From contig JAFGJV010000027.1 of the NCBI GenBank assembly GCA_016928955.1, positions 1 through 64,000 on the forward strand: a stretch of 64,000 nucleotides of DNA, given 5' to 3'. This document shows, in pieces, positions 225 through 12,661 of the stretch; the first letter of the stretch is position 1, and each line of letters opens with the position of its first letter. The notes under the pieces were generated by a model, which was not told the DNA's origin, did not search any database, and saw nothing but the letters and a program-made list of their open reading frames with translations. The DNA comes from Spirochaetales bacterium (GTDB taxonomy: Bacteria > Spirochaetota > Spirochaetia > Treponematales > UBA12059). Made by a program: the position numbers and the translations under genes.

Positions 225-1136
225 ATGTCCATTCCTGACTATCAGACCTGCATGCTCCCACTACTTAAATTCGCTTCTGATGGTAAAGCTCATAAACTGA
301 CTGATGCTATCGAATCTTTATCATCATTTTTTAATCTCACAACAGATGAGCGAGAAGCTGTTCTCCCTTCTGGTACACAGTTTATCATGGCAAACCGTGT
401 TGGTTGGGCAAGAACTTATCTAAAGAAGGCAGGGCTTATCTGTGACCCCAAGCGCGGACTTTTCCAGATCACCGAACGTGGACAGGCGTTGCTTCGGTCA
501 AATCCTCTGGAAATTAATACTAAATCTCTACAGCAATATGAAGAGTTCAATGACTTCAGAAACAAGACCCGTGCAAAGAGTACCCAAGAAGAGCAAGAGA
601 CTGAACACCCCACTTATTCTACACCACAAGAAGCTCTTGAATTTGGCTACCTAAAACTTACAGAAAATCTTTCAGACGAACTGCTTGAAAAAATAATGAC
701 ATGTTCACCAAACTTCTTTGAGCGTCTCGTAGTCGAGTTGCTCGTGAAAATGGGATATGGTGGATCACTAAAAGAAGCCGCCAGTATCGTAGGAAAATCT
801 GGCGATGCTGGTATCGATGGCATCATCAAAGAGGACAAACTCGGTCTCGATGCGATCTATATCCAAGCAAAACGTTGGGATTCTGTTGTGGGACGCCCTG
901 AGATTCAGAAATTTGTTGGAGCCTTGGATGGGCAGAAGGCAAGGAAAGGTATCTTCATTACAACCAGTAGTTTTACAAAAGAGGCTGTTGAGTATGCAAA
1001 AAATACAACCGTCAAGGTTGTACTGGTTGATGGAGATCGTCTTGCCAATCTAATGATCGAAAATTGCCTTGGGGTTAGCACCACCCAAACCTATGAGATA
1101 AAGAAAGTTGATACAGACTATTTTGAGGAAGATTAA
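225..1136 (+). CDS. mrr: Mrr-like restriction endonuclease
   Basis: This 303-aa protein has the Mrr layout: an N-terminal winged-helix region (about residues 1-100) and a C-terminal restriction-endonuclease-like domain (about 160-280). The PD-(D/E)XK-type core is visible as GDAGIDG near residue 193 and IQAKRW near 213-218, supplying the acidic residue and the Q-A-K motif. Characterised Mrr proteins cut methylated foreign DNA in the cytoplasm. The start is supported by GGAGTGAAG just upstream. An MT-A70 methyltransferase follows 35 bp downstream on the same strand, so the pair may work together, although a methylation-dependent nuclease beside an adenine methylase is an awkward combination. 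The gene lies in the AT-rich element and is probably defence cargo. Confidence 0.85.
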   Translation: MSIPDYQTCMLPLLKFASDGKAHKLTDAIESLSSFFNLTTDEREAVLPSGTQFIMANRVGWARTYLKKAGLICDPKRGLFQITERGQALLRSNPLEINTKSLQQYEEFNDFRNKTRAKSTQEEQETEHPTYSTPQEALEFGYLKLTENLSDELLEKIMTCSPNFFERLVVELLVKMGYGGSLKEAASIVGKSGDAGIDGIIKEDKLGLDAIYIQAKRWDSVVGRPEIQKFVGALDGQKARKGIFITTSSFTKEAVEYAKNTTVKVVLVDGDRLANLMIENCLGVSTTQTYEIKKVDTDYFEED

Positions 1137-1171
1137 CATTTTCAACAAATCACTAAGGTTCGAATGATATT

Positions 1172-2155
1172 ATGAACTACCTCGAAGCATGGGACGGCTT
1201 AAAAACAGCTATTGAACAAGCGCACTCCGTCATAGACCTTCGCAAGATTCGCGATCAAGCAGAAGCCTATCGCTACGCCCTCAAAGTTGCGGGAGAATCT
1301 CGCGAAGTGGTCAGGAAGGCTGAAGAGATCAAACTGAGAGCCGAACGCCGGGCTGGTGAGATACTGCTCAAATCACCTAAACAACGTCCCGGCTCATACC
1401 AGCAAAAGCAACGATCAATGGCAGATACCGTTGATATTCCGCCATCCTACAAAGAGCTTGGACTGTCCAAGGTAGATGCATCGAAGTGGCAGAGGATCGC
1501 ATCCATACCAGCTAAAGACTTTGAAAGATGGCTCAAGACCTCTGATGAAGTTTCCTCCGCAGGAGCACTCCGTCTTGAGGCAACCTTGCGATTTGCAGAG
1601 CGAGAAACACCACCACTGCCTTCTGGCAAGTATGGTGTGATCCTTGCCGATCCGCCGTGGGCCTACGAATATAGCCACAAGAGTTTCAAGCGTGTAGATG
1701 ACCACTACCCCACGATGTCAATTGAGGAAATATGTGACATGGGTGCGGACATCAAGAAGCTCTCGGGAAAAGACTGTACGCTTTTTATGTGGATTCCTTC
1801 TCCCCACCTCGACAAGTTTCCAGCCGTACTTGAAGCATGGGGGTTTCGCTATGCGACCACTTGGGTTTGGTCAAAGGCCGGTTACAGCTATGGTCACTAT
1901 GGCAACATCTCGCACGAACTCATTATTATTGGAGCCAAAGGTCAGGGAACTCCAACCTGCGATCCCAAGATTACCGCGCGGATCAGTTCAGTCCAGAGCA
2001 TTCCCAAGACACTCCACTCTGCCAAGCCGCCTGAATACTATGAGATCATCGAAAGTCTGTATCCAGATCGACGATACCTCGAACTCTTCGCACGGAATAC
2101 GGAGCCCCGGAAGAGATGGACGTTCTGGGGAGATGAGGCAAGTGTGGAAAGATAA
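1172..2155 (+). CDS. MT-A70 family DNA adenine N6-methyltransferase
   Basis: This 327-aa protein has the MT-A70 catalytic motif DPPW at residues 160-163, followed by YSH and a conserved YPTMS segment, and a C-terminal region typical of phage and island MT-A70 enzymes (SAKPPEYYEIIESL, then ELFAR). The N-terminal 150 residues are basic and partly helical (KAEEIKLRAERRAGEIL) and probably bind DNA; this extension is common in prophage members. The reaction would be transfer of a methyl group from S-adenosylmethionine to adenine N6 in DNA. The gene is co-directional with mrr and may protect the element or form a modification partner. The recognition sequence cannot be read from the gene. Confidence 0.85.
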   Translation: MNYLEAWDGLKTAIEQAHSVIDLRKIRDQAEAYRYALKVAGESREVVRKAEEIKLRAERRAGEILLKSPKQRPGSYQQKQRSMADTVDIPPSYKELGLSKVDASKWQRIASIPAKDFERWLKTSDEVSSAGALRLEATLRFAERETPPLPSGKYGVILADPPWAYEYSHKSFKRVDDHYPTMSIEEICDMGADIKKLSGKDCTLFMWIPSPHLDKFPAVLEAWGFRYATTWVWSKAGYSYGHYGNISHELIIIGAKGQGTPTCDPKITARISSVQSIPKTLHSAKPPEYYEIIESLYPDRRYLELFARNTEPRKRWTFWGDEASVER

Positions 2156-4711: not shown

Positions 4712-4751
4712 GTTGACTCCTTTTCCGATAGTGGTGCAAGTGGGTGTTCGT

Positions 4752-4852
4752 GGACAGAAAAGACAGAAATTTCTGTCTTTTCAAAACCTTTTTTATTTTG
4801 AAAATCATATAGAATACTTTATCTAGGACAGAAATTTCTGTCTTTTCTGTCC
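4752..4852. repeat. 26-bp inverted repeat built on GACAGAAATTTCTGTC palindromes
   Basis: The segment 4752-4777 and the reverse complement of 4827-4852 are identical over 26 bp. Each arm contains the 16-bp palindrome GACAGAAATTTCTGTC; the left copy extends to a perfect 24-bp palindrome at 4758-4781. The arms are 49 bp apart in AT-rich DNA between the primase-helicase gene and the downstream 153-aa gene. They could be protein-binding sites, part of a replication origin, or stem-loops ending the primase transcript. The sequence alone does not decide. Confidence 0.7.
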
Positions 4853-4880
4853 ATGACCATATATTGATCCATACACCCAG

Positions 4881-7001
4881 CTATGCTACCTGCCGGGCAA
4901 TATGCCATCCCCTTTTCCCGAAATCCTTGTTGTAATCGATTCGGAAGTTCTTTAGACTTTTCCGCATATTCTTCATACGCCTTGTCAGCGATGAGGCGGT
5001 CGTATTGTAAGATTTATTTTTTTCTCGCCACCTCTCAACCAGATCGGAGATGGCAAAGAATCTGTCATTCATATCACCAAGTACATCGTCGAGAAACTCC
5101 TCGAACATCATTCGGTCATCGGCATACTCTTCGTCTTCAGCAGACAATGAAAAATCAAACTCTTCAATCTCGGGATAGAAGGGTCGGAGCATTTTAGCCA
5201 TCGCAACGGACCAACGTGAAAACTTCGCATGCTTCTTCACAGGGACGTCTCTACTAAAATCCACCTCCGCAAGACAAGCCAGAACATCTGCAACTATGTC
5301 TTTCCACTTCGCCTCAAGTTCTATGAATGCTTCGGATATTTCAGCCTTTCTTTCGAGAGAGACATCTCGGCCATCAGTCATCATGATGGTAACTGTCCGA
5401 TTCAGAACATCAGTATTGATTGATTCCCCAGTGTTGAATGTGCATGCATACGTTTTATTGTTCACTACTCTTGAATGCGAGACATACATGATATGCGACG
5501 GTATAGTGATGTCGGTCACTCTGAGCGTGATATTGAGAAGCTGATCGTTTGTAGCATTCTGTATATTGTCTATCAGGACAAACGGATTCTCGAAGGCAAC
5601 AAGACCAGACATCTGCTTTTCATCACTATCGTTCGCCCTGAACTCAAGAGGATCGCGGCCTGTAATACATCGGCATCCCTTCCTTGTGCTGTAGCTCTTT
5701 CCCGAGTTGACTGACGGTGCGATAATCGCAAAAAGAGGCTTCTCTCCGTCGAAAGTCGAATTCATGAAAGAACTGAGTAGCATACTCGCATAACGATACT
5801 GATCTTTTACCGACTCAAGTGTTGCTGTGTTCACGAGCTTCATGAAGAGCCCGTTTTTTTTAGGCTCGATCTGCGAACCTCTATAAAGCGTATCTCTTTG
5901 CATAGTAGGCTCGGGCAAACAGGTTATCCTTCGGTACGCCTCGCAATGTTCCCTCAGAAATACAAGATACTTTGCTTCGGTTATTTCCTTCCCATAAGTA
6001 AAGTCAAGTACAAAGCCGTTCTTTGCGAGGATGAAGTGAAGGTCTTTGGGGTCTGTTATGAAGTAATCTGCCCCTTCCCGGAGAAACATATATTTCCGGC
6101 CTGAAGCGTCTATGAACGAATAGAAAAGGCTCGAAGGTTCTGCCATCTCTTTGGTGTATTCAAGTTCATGTTCTATTGAGACCTGCGTTCTCGTGTTTCC
6201 ATCTTTATCAGGAATCTGACGCTTTATCTTCCGGTAGTTGCGTATTATTTTCTTAGCATCTTCTGGCTTGTATCGCTTCACTGATCGAAGTATGCTGTCT
6301 ACTTCTTTCAAAGAAAGTGGTTCTTCCAAAAGATCGTTTGCCTGATAGAGCATTGGGCCGACATCTTCAAGAGGGTATATTTCAATCCACTTGCATGCGA
6401 GGCGGAATAGTTCCGCGTTCCGACCTCCTCTCGTTATTGACTCTATGCCTTGTCTCGATGAATCAACAGGCATCTTTAGCGATACAACTGGCTCGGCTAA
6501 TAAATCTGAGATCGACTTACCTTTATTCTCAACAATCACAGCATCTTTATTACCAAAAAATAAGCGAGCAATATCGACCACTTTCGGGTCAAAGAAATTA
6601 AATGTAGATTGGAGCTTCCTGAGAAGGTCGCCAAGCTCAACACCACCGACCTCTCTTCCAAGCGGAAAATAGACATGGAAGCGAGGCCGTGCAGATACTG
6701 TTTTTCTCTCATCTACTTTGTCCTTCATGTGATTACGCGAAGTTACGAGATAGTAGTCATATTCATGGAACAAAGCATTGAACCTGTCTTCAGTAATCCA
6801 TTCCTCCTCATTCTCTGTTTCACCGTTGTCGATGTCGCCATATAAGCAGTCGCACGATATGAAGTTCTCAATGGACCTATTGTTGTTGCGGAAGCGGGCC
6901 ATCACATGATCATGTTTCACAGCCTCAGCAAGATCGTGAGTCTCGAAGGGATAAGTCTTGTTTTTTGGCTGATTGATGCTGTTACTATAGTGCAGGGTCA
7001 T
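4881..7001 (-). CDS. primase-helicase replication protein
   Basis: This 706-aa cytoplasmic protein joins three regions. Residues 1-170 resemble an archaeo-eukaryotic-type primase-polymerase (acidic YGDID motif, then PRFHVYFP with the conserved histidine). Around 190-250 is a PriCT-like segment (RGGRNAELFRLACKW). The second half carries an ATPase core with a Walker A (APSVNSGKS) and Walker B-like FVLIDN, as in helicases of plasmids and phage satellites. It would prime and unwind the element's DNA. The start has an excellent ribosome site, AAGGAGG. A strongly structured 134-bp leader precedes it and an inverted repeat follows it. The presence of a replication protein suggests that the excised element can replicate. 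Confidence 0.8.
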   Translation of the reverse strand: MTLHYSNSINQPKNKTYPFETHDLAEAVKHDHVMARFRNNNRSIENFISCDCLYGDIDNGETENEEEWITEDRFNALFHEYDYYLVTSRNHMKDKVDERKTVSARPRFHVYFPLGREVGGVELGDLLRKLQSTFNFFDPKVVDIARLFFGNKDAVIVENKGKSISDLLAEPVVSLKMPVDSSRQGIESITRGGRNAELFRLACKWIEIYPLEDVGPMLYQANDLLEEPLSLKEVDSILRSVKRYKPEDAKKIIRNYRKIKRQIPDKDGNTRTQVSIEHELEYTKEMAEPSSLFYSFIDASGRKYMFLREGADYFITDPKDLHFILAKNGFVLDFTYGKEITEAKYLVFLREHCEAYRRITCLPEPTMQRDTLYRGSQIEPKKNGLFMKLVNTATLESVKDQYRYASMLLSSFMNSTFDGEKPLFAIIAPSVNSGKSYSTRKGCRCITGRDPLEFRANDSDEKQMSGLVAFENPFVLIDNIQNATNDQLLNITLRVTDITIPSHIMYVSHSRVVNNKTYACTFNTGESINTDVLNRTVTIMMTDGRDVSLERKAEISEAFIELEAKWKDIVADVLACLAEVDFSRDVPVKKHAKFSRWSVAMAKMLRPFYPEIEEFDFSLSAEDEEYADDRMMFEEFLDDVLGDMNDRFFAISDLVERWREKNKSYNTTASSLTRRMKNMRKSLKNFRIDYNKDFGKRGWHIARQVA

Positions 7002-7018
7002 TTTTACCTCCTTATAGA

Positions 7019-7152
7019 AAAGTCCTTCCTGCCGGACATGGTTGAACCTATTGTGGATGAGAACTCGGAATCATCCACGAATATCCATATCCGGCAGGAA
7101 GGACTTTCCTCACCGATCCGAGTTCATGTAGCACAAAGAATGGGGTTCAACC
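7019..7152. repeat. interlocked inverted repeats in the leader of the primase gene
   Basis: Four inverted repeats are interleaved. An 18-bp pair lies at 7019-7036 and 7090-7107. An 8-bp hairpin lies at 7053-7060 and 7071-7078. The loop of that hairpin, 7061-7069 (GAACTCGGA), is complementary to 7117-7125. A 9-bp pair lies at 7040-7048 (GGTTGAACC) and 7144-7152. The first two pairs nest together; the last two nest together but cross the first, so the RNA or single-stranded DNA could form a pseudoknot or switch between two folds. The arm at 7019 lies just upstream of the primase ribosome site. Confidence 0.75.
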
Positions 7153-7173
7153 ACTACAATCAAATATGCTTAT

Positions 7174-7422
7174 TTAGTTGATTGTTCTCGCTCCATTCTC
7201 ATCTTTATTTTCGATTTCCTGTACCAGCAGTTCAGCTATCAGTTGATATAGAAATTTATTTTTCAATGCGGCCTGAATGCGAAGCTGACGAAGCAATGAT
7301 CTTGGAATCTTCATGGTTGTGTATGGATCGGATGTTTTTCTTGTATTCATATTCTTATCTTTACAACTTTTCCTTAATAATGCGATTTTACCATGAAAAA
7401 GTTTTCGCCTTGTTGTTGTCAT
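7174..7422 (-). CDS. small basic protein, possible ribbon-helix-helix DNA-binding protein
   Basis: The 82-aa product is very basic at the front and has a C-terminal segment, from about residue 37, with the pattern of a ribbon-helix-helix repressor: a short strand (TTMKIPRSLL) then two helices (RQLRIQAALKNK and LYQLIAELLVQEIE). The start at 7422 is the longest; internal ATGs at 7350 or 7314 are equally plausible because none has a strong ribosome site. It sits between the iteron-like sites and the structured primase leader. A role as copy-number or transcription regulator of the primase is an inference. Confidence 0.5.
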   Translation of the reverse strand: MTTTRRKLFHGKIALLRKSCKDKNMNTRKTSDPYTTMKIPRSLLRQLRIQAALKNKFLYQLIAELLVQEIENKDENGARTIN

Positions 7423-7464
7423 CTCTTTTAAATTCTATCTGTTAATGTTGTAATCTATGTATCA

Positions 7465-7538
7465 GTTCAATGGTTGAACACCAGAAGCCATATTCATTGA
7501 TTTGCTGTTCAATGGTTGAACGAGGTGTTCAATGGTTG
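7465..7538. repeat. iteron-like sites GTTCAATGGTTGAAC
   Basis: Perfect copies of the near-palindrome GTTCAATGGTTGAAC lie at 7465-7479 and 7507-7521, and a partial copy (GTTCAATGGTTG) at 7527-7538. Their starts are 42 and 20 bp apart, close to whole helical turns, so bound proteins would lie on one face of the DNA. Related GGTTGAACC and GGTTCAACC elements occur in the primase leader. This looks like an operator array or origin iterons upstream of the 82-aa gene and the primase. Confidence 0.65.
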
Positions 7539-7802
7539 TAATGCAAAAAATTTGAACACGAAAAAAGCATACTTAATGATATGAGAATGCAAACCATAAT
7601 CACAATCGTATGCGCCATGCTCGGCCTTGATTACCTCTTCGGCCTCCCGCGCACGGAGGCAGATCGCGCGGAGGGCATCATCGCGATAGTCGTGACGCAG
7701 GGCAGTCTCCTCCTCCATGGCGCGGTATTGGATAAGCCAATCGGGCATCCAGTTGTCGAGAGCGAGGTTGATTCTATCTACTGCGAGTTCAATGGAAGTC
7801 AC
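7509..7802 (-). CDS. hypothetical protein, 97 aa
   Basis: The frame starts with GTG at 7802, with GGTGGG upstream as a weak ribosome site, overlapping the end of a 31-aa ORF. The first 65 residues look like a soluble helical protein (ELAVDRINLALDNW, then EEETALRHDYRDDALRAI); the last 25 are hydrophobic and run through the iteron-like repeats. No family was recognised. It is the third member of a tightly spaced minus-strand series headed by the four-HTH protein. Confidence 0.4.
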   Translation of the reverse strand: MTSIELAVDRINLALDNWMPDWLIQYRAMEEETALRHDYRDDALRAICLRAREAEEVIKAEHGAYDCDYGLHSHIIKYAFFVFKFFALQPLNTSFNH

Positions 7803-7884
7803 TGGCCCACCAGTTGCATTGATTGCATGTATTCACCAACCTCATCGCCCGCGCTTCCATGTAGTGGAAGATGGATTGATACAT
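7789..7884 (-). CDS. small ORF, 31 aa, coupled to the HTH gene
   Basis: The ATG shares its A with the TGA stop of the HTH gene (TGATG), an arrangement typical of coupled translation, and GGCGGAGAGG upstream can serve as ribosome site. The peptide contains CNQCNWW, a Cys-x-x-Cys pair. It is too short to classify and could be chance. Confidence 0.3.
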   Translation of the reverse strand: MYQSIFHYMEARAMRLVNTCNQCNWWASDFH

Positions 7885-8477
7885 CAGTCCTCTCCGCCAA
7901 TATGCCCGTGAAGCAAGTTGCAGATCGTCGCCTCACTTAACGAGAGGAGTTTAGCGATTGCCTTTTGGCTATGCCCGCAACGCTTCAGTCTCCTGATTTC
8001 GGGTAGGAGATGATACAGCTTTGAGAAGAATCTCTTCCCCAAGGGCTGGATATGAAATTTGTGACAGTAATTCAAAACGCAGGTCGAACCAACTCCGAGA
8101 TCAGTTGCGATCTCTGCGTAACTTTTACCCTCCTTCCGCCAGTTTTCTATCGCTACGCGATGCTGGTCGAGAATAGAAGGTTTCTTTTCACTGCTTCGCC
8201 ATTTTAGCTTGGCAAGCTCGCGCGATACATTATTTCGCCCCAAGCGTAGAAAAAGCGAGATTTCGGTTATAGTTTTCCCGCTTCTTAACCAATACAAGAC
8301 TTTTTGCTTATTGGCCAAAAGAACTTCGCGGGTTTGGTTTTTTCGCGGATTAGGCGGTGTATTTGATTCCAACAAGCGAAGTCGCACGGTGCTCGGCGAG
8401 CAACCAACTTTATCAGCGATGGTGTAAATTGATTTCCCGCGTTCATAGAGATTGATAATCCTCTCGCAAGTCTTCAT
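7884..8477 (-). CDS. DNA-binding protein with four helix-turn-helix repeats
   Basis: The 197-aa product consists of four similar helix-turn-helix units, at about residues 8-37, 58-88, 107-138 and 157-189. Each begins with a basic Gly-containing turn (ERGKSIYTIA, RSGKTITEIS, KEGKSYAEIA, RCGHSQKAIA) followed by a recognition-helix pattern. No catalytic or ligand-binding domain is present. The fold resembles resolvase/transposase-type HTH domains repeated in tandem. Heading the minus-strand replication module, it may bind the iteron-like sites downstream and act as initiator or regulator. This role is inferred from position. Confidence 0.6.
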   Translation of the reverse strand: MKTCERIINLYERGKSIYTIADKVGCSPSTVRLRLLESNTPPNPRKNQTREVLLANKQKVLYWLRSGKTITEISLFLRLGRNNVSRELAKLKWRSSEKKPSILDQHRVAIENWRKEGKSYAEIATDLGVGSTCVLNYCHKFHIQPLGKRFFSKLYHLLPEIRRLKRCGHSQKAIAKLLSLSEATICNLLHGHIGGED

Positions 8478-8867
8478 CTCGTTCCTCCCCCAATTGGCTC
8501 AAGTATCTCTAAGCCGCCTTCGTGAAACTAATCTTGCTCATAGCCGAAGCGTGAGATAGGAGTGATTTGGCCATACCGCCCAGAACATATGATCTTCGCC
8601 ATCCGCTACCTCCCCGGTGCCAACGCCTCATGGCGTAACAACGCACCTCATGTGAAGAAGGATAGCAGATCGAGAGACTATGTACATGTTCTATTTTCTT
8701 CCTGTTGTAGTATTTATATGTTTTTTATTACCCAGTTACATACAGCTTTCAACAAACGACCTTTTCCTCTTAGCTTTCCTCCAATCAATGGCTGTGCTAA
8801 TCTTTCAAGCGTCAGACTGACTCATGTAGGGCCTCAATCCCAATCACGAAACAAAGGGAATGTATTC
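8478..8867. other. divergent intergenic region, no clear gene
   Basis: About 390 bp separate the HTH gene (minus) from the recombinase-domain protein (plus). A frame is open through it from 8562, but the translated residues are low quality and contain no resolvase catalytic motif, so the plus-strand gene is placed at the ATG at 8868. The region presumably holds promoters for both directions; none is clear enough to call. Confidence 0.4.
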
Positions 8868-10496
8868 ATGGTGGTACCCAAAAAGCCTCATGCTCTATTC
8901 GGTTATGCACACTACGACGTAGATGGCAAGATAATCACCGAAATAATCGAAGAACAAGCAAGGGTCATTTCCTCGATCTTTCGTTACTTCATCGATGAGC
9001 GCCTGACATTGAATGCTATCGCGACCAAGCTCAATGCTGATCCTGTCTCTTTAACAGCAATGAGTAGCGAGAAAAATGAACATCGCTTCCATGCCACGAC
9101 TATAGAAAAAATACTTAGACGCCCTGAGTATGGCGGGTATCAGAGAGATACAGATGACGACCTCGTTCCTTCGACGATATTCGAAGGTATCATTTCAGTA
9201 GAAGATTGGTACCATGCCCAATACCTTCTCAACAAAAAATCAAGCAAAAACAAGGGAAGCAAGCGACAAGTTGATCATCCATTGACCGGTATCATTAAAT
9301 GCGCTGAGTATAAAAAGAAATACTATATAAAACCAAAGGCCAACATATATTTACATTCACAGCAAGAGATATGTAAATGCAACAGTCAGAAATCAATACC
9401 AGCAAAGCACAGCGACGAACTACTGTTTTCGATCATTCTGGATTATCTAACACGCCCAGAGTTGCTGAAATACAGACTGCGGCATCATCAGATGTCATGG
9501 TACTTCGCCCATCGTGTGGCAAAAATGACTTACACTGAGCCGCTTACCTTCCCTCTTTCGAGCAAAGCAATCAGCCGTGCAGAAAAGTCGCTCTTGGCAT
9601 GGGATTCTACAATAGAAAAGTCTTCTATTGCATTTTCACGCATTGAAAGCAACTTGGTATTCGAGGCAAGAGGAATGCAATCCATACACGAAGCCATATT
9701 GCCAGAGATTAGTAGCTATACCAAGAATGCGATTCAGAAATGGTTCACTCGAATACCGAAATCAGCAAGGCTCGAACTTCTGGACGATTCGATTGAATCA
9801 ATCGAGCTTCAGGGCCGACGACTAATCATGTCCTTCTTTCAAGACTTGAAGATAACCGTAGCCATCGACTACTTCAAGAATCGATCATCACATTGGGCAA
9901 AAAGAAGAGTAGAAAACTCAAAACTCGGAAGTACCAAGTGGAATATCTTTGAAATGCCAAGTTTCATTTCTCAACACGTTAACAAACTTATCAAGCGCCT
10001 CTGTCATGATGAAGAATCTGCTGGATTGATGGCATCTAATGCTATCTGTACAAATTTCTTGAGTCGTGGGCTTATACCCGCAAACAGAAAGTTTTATTTT
10101 TCGATTAGCGACTATGTGTACATGCAAGATACCAGCATTAAAAAGGATAACATATGGTCATTCAGGTACGGCAACCAAGGCACAGTTTTTATTGAAGCAG
10201 ATGGATCACAAGAGACCGAATCACCAATCCATCGCAATGGGGAACTGATCTCGTTCCGTTTAGGCAATCAAGCCTATTTCAATGCCAAGTTCTTGCACAG
10301 CCTTCCTGAATGGTTCTACGGCCACAACTATGAATACTTTCTTGCTGACAAGCAACGAATCTGCTTCATTGAAGATGACAACAAAATTCTCGCCAAGATT
10401 CTTGGAAGAGGGGGGAAGAAGATTGAAATCGAAACGGCAAGGGCTTTCGAGATTATCATGAATAGCGAAAAGCTGAGATACATTGAGATCGATTAG
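8868..10496 (+). CDS. recombinase-domain protein lacking the resolvase catalytic domain
   Basis: The 542-aa protein begins where a large serine recombinase would enter its 'recombinase' DNA-binding domain (about residues 5-130: FGYAHYDVDGKI, EEQARVISSIFRYF, IEKILRRPEYGGY). A zinc-ribbon-like region with degraded cysteines (GIIKCAEYKKKYY, then CKCN) follows, and then a long C-terminal part of unknown type. The N-terminal serine-resolvase domain (about 150 residues with the nucleophile) is absent and is not found upstream in any frame. The start follows AAAGGGA. Either it is a degenerate integrase or a DNA-binding accessory protein; the intact length favours the latter. Confidence 0.6.
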   Translation: MVVPKKPHALFGYAHYDVDGKIITEIIEEQARVISSIFRYFIDERLTLNAIATKLNADPVSLTAMSSEKNEHRFHATTIEKILRRPEYGGYQRDTDDDLVPSTIFEGIISVEDWYHAQYLLNKKSSKNKGSKRQVDHPLTGIIKCAEYKKKYYIKPKANIYLHSQQEICKCNSQKSIPAKHSDELLFSIILDYLTRPELLKYRLRHHQMSWYFAHRVAKMTYTEPLTFPLSSKAISRAEKSLLAWDSTIEKSSIAFSRIESNLVFEARGMQSIHEAILPEISSYTKNAIQKWFTRIPKSARLELLDDSIESIELQGRRLIMSFFQDLKITVAIDYFKNRSSHWAKRRVENSKLGSTKWNIFEMPSFISQHVNKLIKRLCHDEESAGLMASNAICTNFLSRGLIPANRKFYFSISDYVYMQDTSIKKDNIWSFRYGNQGTVFIEADGSQETESPIHRNGELISFRLGNQAYFNAKFLHSLPEWFYGHNYEYFLADKQRICFIEDDNKILAKILGRGGKKIEIETARAFEIIMNSEKLRYIEID

Positions 10497-10572
10497 GGCT
10501 TTGTAGCAGGGAGACTGTCATGTCCCTCATAACGAACCGCAAAGGGTGATGATTGTGGTACCAAGATCATCC

Positions 10573-11001
10573 TTATTGTGGAAGCAGATTCTTACTTTCC
10601 AGCTTCAGTTGCTTCTTTGCCTTACGATAAATTTCAAGTGTTACTATTGGAGTAAGATTCTTCACTCCGACCAGCTTCCCGCGTTGCTCGATATACCCAG
10701 CATAGATTGGCCGAATGAGGGCTGTGATCCGAGCGAAAGAATAGCGATTGTTGCTTGAGTCACGGGCCTTCATCTCGTCGAGCGCGGCCTTAGTCTCGAG
10801 AAGGGTCTTTCCCGCCGCAAGCATCTCGTTGATTGTCTTGATCGCGGGCGCGAAACGCTCGTCCGGTTCGTAATGTCCTCGTACAAGGCGGTAGCCAAAG
10901 AGACGTGACATGAATACGGTCCCGCTGGAATAGTAAGCGCGGACACCGGCCTTACGTTTTTGTTTAGTGATAACATTTTTAAGGGCTTTGATAAATTCCA
11001 T
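10573..11001 (-). CDS. small recombinase-domain-like protein without catalytic domain
   Basis: This 142-aa protein resembles the recombinase domain that follows the catalytic domain in serine recombinases: FGYRLVRGHYEPDE, then APAIKTINEMLAAGKTLLE, then ITALIRPIYAGYIEQRGKLVGV and a C-terminal strand-helix. It is the second protein of this kind in the element and again has no resolvase domain. It lies just downstream of, and in the same direction as, the tyrosine integrase. It may be a recombination directionality or DNA-binding accessory factor, or a remnant. Confidence 0.5.
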   Translation of the reverse strand: MEFIKALKNVITKQKRKAGVRAYYSSGTVFMSRLFGYRLVRGHYEPDERFAPAIKTINEMLAAGKTLLETKAALDEMKARDSSNNRYSFARITALIRPIYAGYIEQRGKLVGVKNLTPIVTLEIYRKAKKQLKLESKNLLPQ

Positions 11002-12356: not shown

Positions 12357-12588
12357 GGTCTCTCCTTTGCCCAGCCTTTTACTCGGGCGGCATTCCCTTC
12401 GGGTGCCTCACAAGGAACTATGCTTTTTTGAGCAGTAGTTCGGAGATTTGGGTTGGAAAACGGAGAAATCGCTGAAATGGTCGGTTTAGTGGTCGCATTT
12501 GGAACGGAAAACGAAAATGCCGAAGCCATCTTGTTACGATGACTTCGGCATTTCGTTGTAAGAAAAAGAAATACACTAATCAGCTTCG
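12357..12588. other. integrase upstream region and probable attachment-site flank
   Basis: No gene is seen between the integrase start and the tRNA 3' end. The stretch probably contains the attR-side integrase arm sites and the integrase promoter. The attachment core should be the tRNA 3' part itself (about 12589-12625), reconstituted by the element on insertion. The second copy is not present in positions 1-12000 and must lie beyond the left edge. Confidence 0.45.
12515..12553 (-). terminator. terminator downstream of tRNA-Thr
   Basis: A perfect 11-bp inverted repeat (AAATGCCGAAG at 12515-12525 and CTTCGGCATTT at 12543-12553), extended by ACG/CGT with one bulge, is followed on the minus strand by TTTTCGTTTT. 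It lies 36 bp past the tRNA 3' end and can end the tRNA transcript. Confidence 0.6.
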
Positions 12589-12661
12589 AGCCGAGACCGG
12601 GAATCGAACCCGGTACCTGCGCATTACGAGTGCGCCGCTCTGCCAAGTGAGCTATCTCGGC
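12589..12661 (-). tRNA. tRNA-Thr (anticodon CGU)
   Basis: The reverse complement folds as a 73-nt cloverleaf: acceptor GCCGAGA/TCTCGGC, D stem GCTC/GAGC, anticodon stem GCGCA/TGCGC with loop CTCGTAA (anticodon CGT), and T stem CCGGG/CCCGG with TTCGATT loop. The discriminator base is U, and CCA is not encoded. Anticodon CGU reads the threonine codon ACG. It is intact and marks the boundary between the AT-rich element and the GC-rich chromosome. Confidence 0.95.

What the first reader, a model, noticed from the sequence alone, without database searches (positions are those of the whole stretch)
7019..7152. Interlocked inverted repeats that can form a pseudoknot or a two-state switch
The order of complementary segments is A-B-C-D-C'-A'-D'-B', with 18-, 9-, 8- and 9-bp pairs. 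The hairpin loop D pairs with a downstream segment, and B and D pairs cross the A stem. It lies in the leader of the primase-helicase gene, one arm ending just before the ribosome site. Candidates are a riboregulator of primase synthesis, a replication origin, or a transfer origin.
Basis: seen in the sequence. Interest (0 to 1): 0.65.

Follow-up and report, generated by a model that had tools for sequence, protein, structure and literature searches.

The report
Bistable RNA leader of integrated-element primase
The stretch just before the replication (primase-helicase) gene of an integrated mobile element can fold into two alternative long RNA hairpins that form one after the other during transcription; this looks like an RNA switch on replication, possibly one that also makes a small self-targeting RNA, but no related copy was found to confirm it.

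Summary
In detail: four perfect inverted repeats (18, 10, 8 and 9 bp) interlock in 7019-7153; none of 3000 shuffles had even three of them. They fill the gap between a small upstream gene and the primase-helicase gene of an element integrated in tRNA-Thr. The RNA reading is favoured. In the primase-sense transcript an early hairpin (B-E-D, -45 kcal/mol, z -4.4) forms first and is overtaken by the A+C hairpin (-62, z -6.6) once the last arm is made, about 21-27 nt before the start codon. On the other strand A forms first and there is no switch. If the A hairpin were cut out, its D loop would be exposed and complementary to the upstream leader, the logic of phage P4 CI / C4 RNA; but it does not match the C4 family. 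A replication origin here is less likely: this primase family has a covarying inverted-repeat element just after the primase gene (54 of 88 relatives; shuffles 0.37), and the window has its own at 4745-4859. An oriT has no support. No relative carries the leader element, so covariation is untested. B shares 9 nt with upstream operator-like palindromes, so part may be protein-binding DNA.

The parts
7019..7036 (-). arm a (3' arm of helix A in primase-sense RNA); with 7016-7018 and 7037-7041 part of the extended 26-nt arm; ends 3 nt before the SD
7090..7107 (-). arm a' (5' arm of helix A)
7039..7048 (-). segment b (GGUUCAACCA in RNA), pairs with b'; 7 of 10 nt unpaired in the isolated A hairpin; contains the 9-mer shared with operator-like palindromes
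7144..7153 (-). segment b' (UGGUUGAACC), upstream partner of b
7053..7060 (-). arm c of inner hairpin C (partner 7071-7078)
7071..7078 (-). arm c' of inner hairpin C
7061..7069 (-). segment d (UCCGAGUUC), 9 of the 10 loop nt of hairpin C, 96-100% unpaired in the isolated hairpin, pairs with d'
7117..7125 (-). segment d' (GAACUCGGA), upstream partner of d
7051..7055 (-). segment e (CACAA), pairs with e' 7132-7136 (UUGUG) in the early B-E-D hairpin; overlaps arm c
7006..7013 (-). Shine-Dalgarno sequence AAGGAGGU of the primase gene
   Evidence: read from sequence
4881..7001 (-). primase-helicase gene, 706 aa: N-terminal primase with PriCT-1 (phrog_1883-like), C-terminal helicase
   Evidence: C-terminal relative L205 at 32%
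7174..7422 (-). 82-aa protein upstream of the leader, ribbon-helix-helix-like by eye only; candidate autorepressor
   Evidence: no family hit; single-sequence model uninformative, pTM 0.28
7465..7541 (.). three operator-like repeats GTTCAATGGTTGAAC (7465-7479, 7507-7521, 7527-7541 at 87%) in front of the 82-aa gene
4745..4859 (-). inverted-repeat element just after the primase gene: arms 4745-4777/4827-4859, six GACAGAAA units; counterpart of the conserved origin-like element of the family

Best explanation
It is an RNA-level control leader of the primase-helicase gene. Shown by computation: in the primase-sense transcript the segments can form an early B-E-D hairpin and then, when the last arm is transcribed just before the ribosome site, the more stable A+C hairpin; the two share only a few nucleotides, so a pseudoknot of both is possible. 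Inferred: this sequential folding limits primase synthesis, and so replication of the element. The most likely form is that helix A is cut out of the leader as a roughly 95-nt RNA whose exposed D loop and B segment pair with b' and d' of other leader transcripts, giving copy-dependent repression like P4 CI / P1 C4 RNA. A purely cis-acting switch is the alternative form. About 0.3 of the total is for the trans-acting form and 0.28 for cis only.
For: Four interlocked perfect pairs far beyond chance. Both alternative states fold better than shuffles in the minus-strand RNA: 7037-7153 -45.1, z -4.4, 0/500; 7016-7153 -62.3, z -6.6; isolated hairpin 7016-7110 -57.8, z -10.6. The switch of the minimum-energy fold falls between 7028 and 7022, right before the SD, and on the plus strand there is no such order of events. 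Both imperfect positions of helix A are G.U in the primase-sense RNA. d is 96-100% and b 7/10 unpaired in the isolated hairpin, and d' is mostly unpaired in the upstream leader. The origin role appears to be taken by a different, family-wide element downstream. Position and logic resemble the P4 leader, where Rfam finds C4 and isrK RNAs ahead of the alpha primase gene and CI RNA pairs with an upstream target (PMC4825925).
Against: No relative carries the leader, so there is no covariation support. No transcript data; no promoter was identified with confidence. b shares a 9-mer with the operator-like DNA palindromes, so B/B' may exist for protein binding. The wobble next to stem C favours the plus strand. 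The leader does not match Rfam C4 or any family. The U run after arm a is largely inside helix A, so a plain intrinsic terminator is not indicated.
Confidence: 0.58

Rival explanations
1. DNA-level site: the inverted repeats are protein-binding or strand-folding sites (secondary replication site for the primase-helicase, or operator half-sites of the 82-aa protein); RNA pairing is a by-product.
For: TGGTTGAAC occurs four times in 64 kb, all at 7039-7521: in B, in B' and in both upstream palindromes; 9 of the 26 TTGAAC sites lie in 7042-7557. P4 has both an origin and a second cis-required region for replication.
Against: D has no other exact copy in the window that would mark it as an iteron. 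The family's origin-like element lies downstream and its GACAGAAA units are absent from the leader. The arms sit exactly between the upstream stop codon and the SD.
Confidence: 0.24
2. Intrinsic or Rho-linked transcription attenuator acting only in cis, helix A being the terminator-like state.
For: A very stable late hairpin followed by UUUUCU, just ahead of the gene; an early competing fold.
Against: The loop is 43 nt, the U run is mostly paired, and the terminator scan found nothing (which allows only loops up to 8). The early fold uses few bases of A, so it is a weak antiterminator.
Confidence: 0.12
3. Relic of repeated inversion or duplication, or of a small inserted palindromic element, without present function.
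For: No conservation anywhere; large perfect arms look young.
Against: Three further pairs besides A, in a fixed nested and crossed order, are not explained by one duplication; no other copy in the genome.
Confidence: 0.06

Closest known systems
Phage P4 CI RNA / C4 antisense RNA (Rfam RF01695)
   Same: Structured RNA in the untranslated leader ahead of a satellite-type primase gene; hairpin with an exposed segment complementary to an upstream leader segment; C4 RNAs also use two complementary blocks (the latter from general knowledge).
   Different: No sequence or model match; complementary segments are perfect and the enclosing helix is 26 nt long; it lies directly before the primase ribosome site rather than far upstream in the operon; no transcript evidence.
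copG-repB leader and RNAII of plasmid pMV158
   Same: Order small (possibly ribbon-helix-helix) repressor gene - structured intergenic leader - replication gene, with palindromic operator-like repeats before the repressor gene.
   Different: RNAII is a counter-transcript from the opposite strand (PMC4485353); here the complementarity is within one strand.
Replication-gene leader pseudoknots of IncB/IncI plasmids (general knowledge)
   Same: A hairpin loop pairs with a distant segment of the same leader to control a replication gene.
   Different: There the loop pairing is short and activates translation with a leader peptide; not tested here and no sequence relation.
Origin-like inverted repeat after the primase gene in phages of this primase family
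   Same: Adjacent to the primase-helicase gene; long inverted arms with a loop of 60-90 nt.
   Different: Downstream, built from 10-nt direct and inverted units, mostly without crossing pairs; the window has its own copy at 4745-4859.

Membership tests
C4 antisense RNA / P4 CI (RF01695) | Match to the covariance model | tested here: not met
   No C4 hit in 6950-7250 at E up to 10; the same library finds it in P4 at 74.9 bits.
C4 antisense RNA / P4 CI (RF01695) | Unpaired segments complementary to a target in the same operon's leader | tested here: met
   d and b exposed in the 7016-7110 hairpin, complementary to d' and b'; predicted structure only.
C4 antisense RNA / P4 CI (RF01695) | Small RNA processed from the leader transcript and acting in trans | not testable with these tools
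   Needs Northern blot or RNA-seq.
pMV158-type copG-antisense-rep control | Small ribbon-helix-helix repressor gene with operator before the rep gene | tested here: inconclusive
   82-aa gene with palindromes upstream; no family hit, model uninformative.
pMV158-type copG-antisense-rep control | Counter-transcribed antisense RNA in the intergenic region | tested here: inconclusive
   No sigma-70-like promoter on the plus strand in 6900-8600; consensus scan only.
Replication origin of the phrog_1883/PriCT-1 primase family | Inverted iteron arms just after the primase stop codon | tested here: not met
   The leader is upstream and has no GACAGAAA unit; the feature is met by 4745-4859 instead.
Transfer origin (oriT) | Cognate relaxase gene in the element | tested here: not met
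   None among the main ORFs of the 12.6 kb of the element seen in the window; the rest of the element is missing, and mobilisation in trans cannot be excluded.
Any known structured RNA family | Rfam match above gathering score | tested here: not met
   Only a tRNA in the window; sub-threshold hits are generic hairpins, microRNA models.

The most novel reading that the evidence does not exclude
A new sequence class of CI/C4-like RNA immunity in an integrated element unrelated to P4: one leader that switches co-transcriptionally and also yields a small RNA with a two-block antisense surface against its own leader, giving copy-number or superinfection control of primase synthesis.
Probability: 0.28. 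Interest if true: 0.65.

Novelty: new variant of a known kind. Interest (0 to 1): 0.45.

Why it matters
If right, it extends RNA-based control of replication genes, known from P4, P1 and a few plasmids, to an integrated element with its own unrelated sequence. It is also a compact natural example of a leader whose topology (pseudoknot or switch) is set by the order of transcription and can be tested with simple reporters.

Tried and rejected
Rfam at gathering and permissive thresholds: no family. Protein relatives for covariation: genome contigs and viral-contig scans with the whole protein, the helicase part and its Walker region, the 82-aa and HTH proteins, genomes of the same family, order, class and phylum: only distant relatives (N-domain about 33%, L205 helicase 32%, L209 24%), none with the leader element. 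The GTTCAATGGTTGAAC palindrome in viral contigs gave 92 single matches, consistent with chance. blastn of the leader against phages and plasmids: nothing of use. C4 family in 394 genomes of the order: no hit, but the control genomes also gave none, so uninformative. Structure model of the 82-aa protein: uninformative. Transfer origin rejected for lack of a relaxase. Plain intrinsic terminator judged unlikely.

Full report
What is there. Of 3000 dinucleotide shuffles of the stretch none had three inverted repeats of 8 bp or more and none an 18-bp one. In the whole 64-kb window no other stem of 12 bp or more is crossed by another pair of 8 bp or more. Observation confirmed.

Setting. The stretch fills the gap between a small 82-aa gene (7174-7422, minus strand) and the 706-aa primase-helicase gene (4881-7001, minus), ending 3 nt before a strong ribosome site. 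The element it belongs to is integrated in tRNA-Thr(CGT) (12588-12661): an integrase gene lies next to the tRNA, and a 44-bp copy of the tRNA 3' part marks the other end on contig C42:641-684. The window begins at the contig start, so part of the element is missing. It also carries an Mrr-type restriction gene, an MT-A70 methylase gene and degenerate-looking serine recombinase genes. No phage structural or relaxase gene turned up among the ORFs scanned.

Which strand. Both strands can form the hairpin (-69.1 kcal/mol minus, z -5.6; -62.2 plus, z -5.2). The two imperfect positions of the extended helix A (7016-7041/7085-7110) are G.U in the minus RNA and A.C in the plus; one next to stem C goes the other way. 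Growing-transcript folding differs by strand. In the minus RNA the early B-E-D hairpin (B 10 bp, E 7132-7136/7051-7055, D 9 bp) is the best fold until the transcript passes about 7028 (-45.1, z -4.4, 0 of 500 shuffles). From 7022 on, A+C is best (-62.3, z -6.6). In the plus direction A forms first and stays. These are minimum-energy predictions without pseudoknots or kinetics. A and B-E-D share only three nucleotides, so a pseudoknot containing both is possible; C and E overlap by three.

Relatives. No close relative of the protein or the leader was found. The N-terminal primase domain (residues 1-245) is about 31-42% identical to that of phage primases, mostly of Streptococcus and Clostridia phages. 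The helicase part has one clear relative, L205, 32% over 464 aa. None has the leader element. Covariation of the leader is therefore untested.

Origin or not. The relatives gave an unexpected control. Just after the primase stop codon 54 of 88 loci have inverted arms of 10 bp or more, against a mean of 0.37 in shuffles (68 of 88 with looser limits). The arm sequences differ between phages but stay complementary: 16 of 16 pairs show compensatory changes. Many arms are built from 10-nt units and flank an A+T-rich, partly conserved core. This looks like an iteron-type origin. The window has its own at 4745-4859, with arms of 33 nt at 94% and all six GACAGAAA sites of the 64 kb. The leader has none of these units. 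This lowers, without excluding, an origin role for the leader; P4 has two cis sites for replication.

Protein-site component. The 9-mer TGGTTGAAC is found four times in 64 kb: in B, in B' and in two palindromes GTTCAATGGTTGAAC before the 82-aa gene. Nine of the 26 TTGAAC sites lie in 7042-7557. So B/B' may be, at least in part, DNA half-sites of a repressor, perhaps the 82-aa protein, which looks ribbon-helix-helix-like by eye but matched no library.

Most likely working. Sequential folding of the leader RNA sets primase synthesis. In the hairpin 7016-7110 taken alone, d is 96-100% unpaired and b is exposed at 7 of 10 positions, both complementary to the upstream leader. This is the geometry of P4 CI / C4 RNA, which is processed from its own leader and pairs with an upstream target (PMC4825925). 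P4 itself shows C4 and isrK matches in that leader, whereas the window leader does not match C4 even at E = 10. It may work like C4; it is not shown to be a member. Processing, trans action and the effect on translation or termination are inference.

Verdict. Real, non-random, probably an RNA control leader (0.58), with a DNA-site rival at 0.24. Interest is moderate because it stands alone in the databases searched.

Noticed in passing
window 4745-4859; L015-L022 and L115-L194 just after the primase gene: Conserved, covarying inverted-repeat element (10-nt units, loop 60-90 nt, A+T-rich core AAAGTTTCTTAGG..CCTAAGAAAAGTTT) directly after the primase-helicase gene: 54 of 88 relatives versus 0.37 in shuffles, 16/16 pairs with compensatory changes, no Rfam match in 14 loci scanned. 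Probably the family's replication origin.
   Followed up: partly
window 12588-12661 and G000 C42:641-684 (L014): Attachment site pair of the element in tRNA-Thr(CGT), 44-bp core; small ORF at C42:98-424, possibly an excisionase by position.
   Followed up: partly
window 7465-7541: Two exact and one degenerate copy of GTTCAATGGTTGAAC, operator-like, before the 82-aa gene.
   Followed up: partly
window 225-2155: Mrr-type restriction gene next to an MT-A70 methyltransferase gene, a likely defence cargo.
   Followed up: no
window 7884-8477: 197-aa protein made of helix-turn-helix repeats, weakly like the CRISPR repeat-binding protein Cbp1 (56 bits, below its cut-off of 140).
   Followed up: no
window 8562-11001: Two serine-recombinase-like reading frames (8562-10496 plus, 10573-11001 minus) matching only the Recombinase domain in Pfam; they look degenerate.
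   Followed up: no
window 7114-7155, minus strand: A 14-codon frame (GTG..TGA) spans b' and d' without a clear ribosome site; could be a leader peptide or chance.
   Followed up: no
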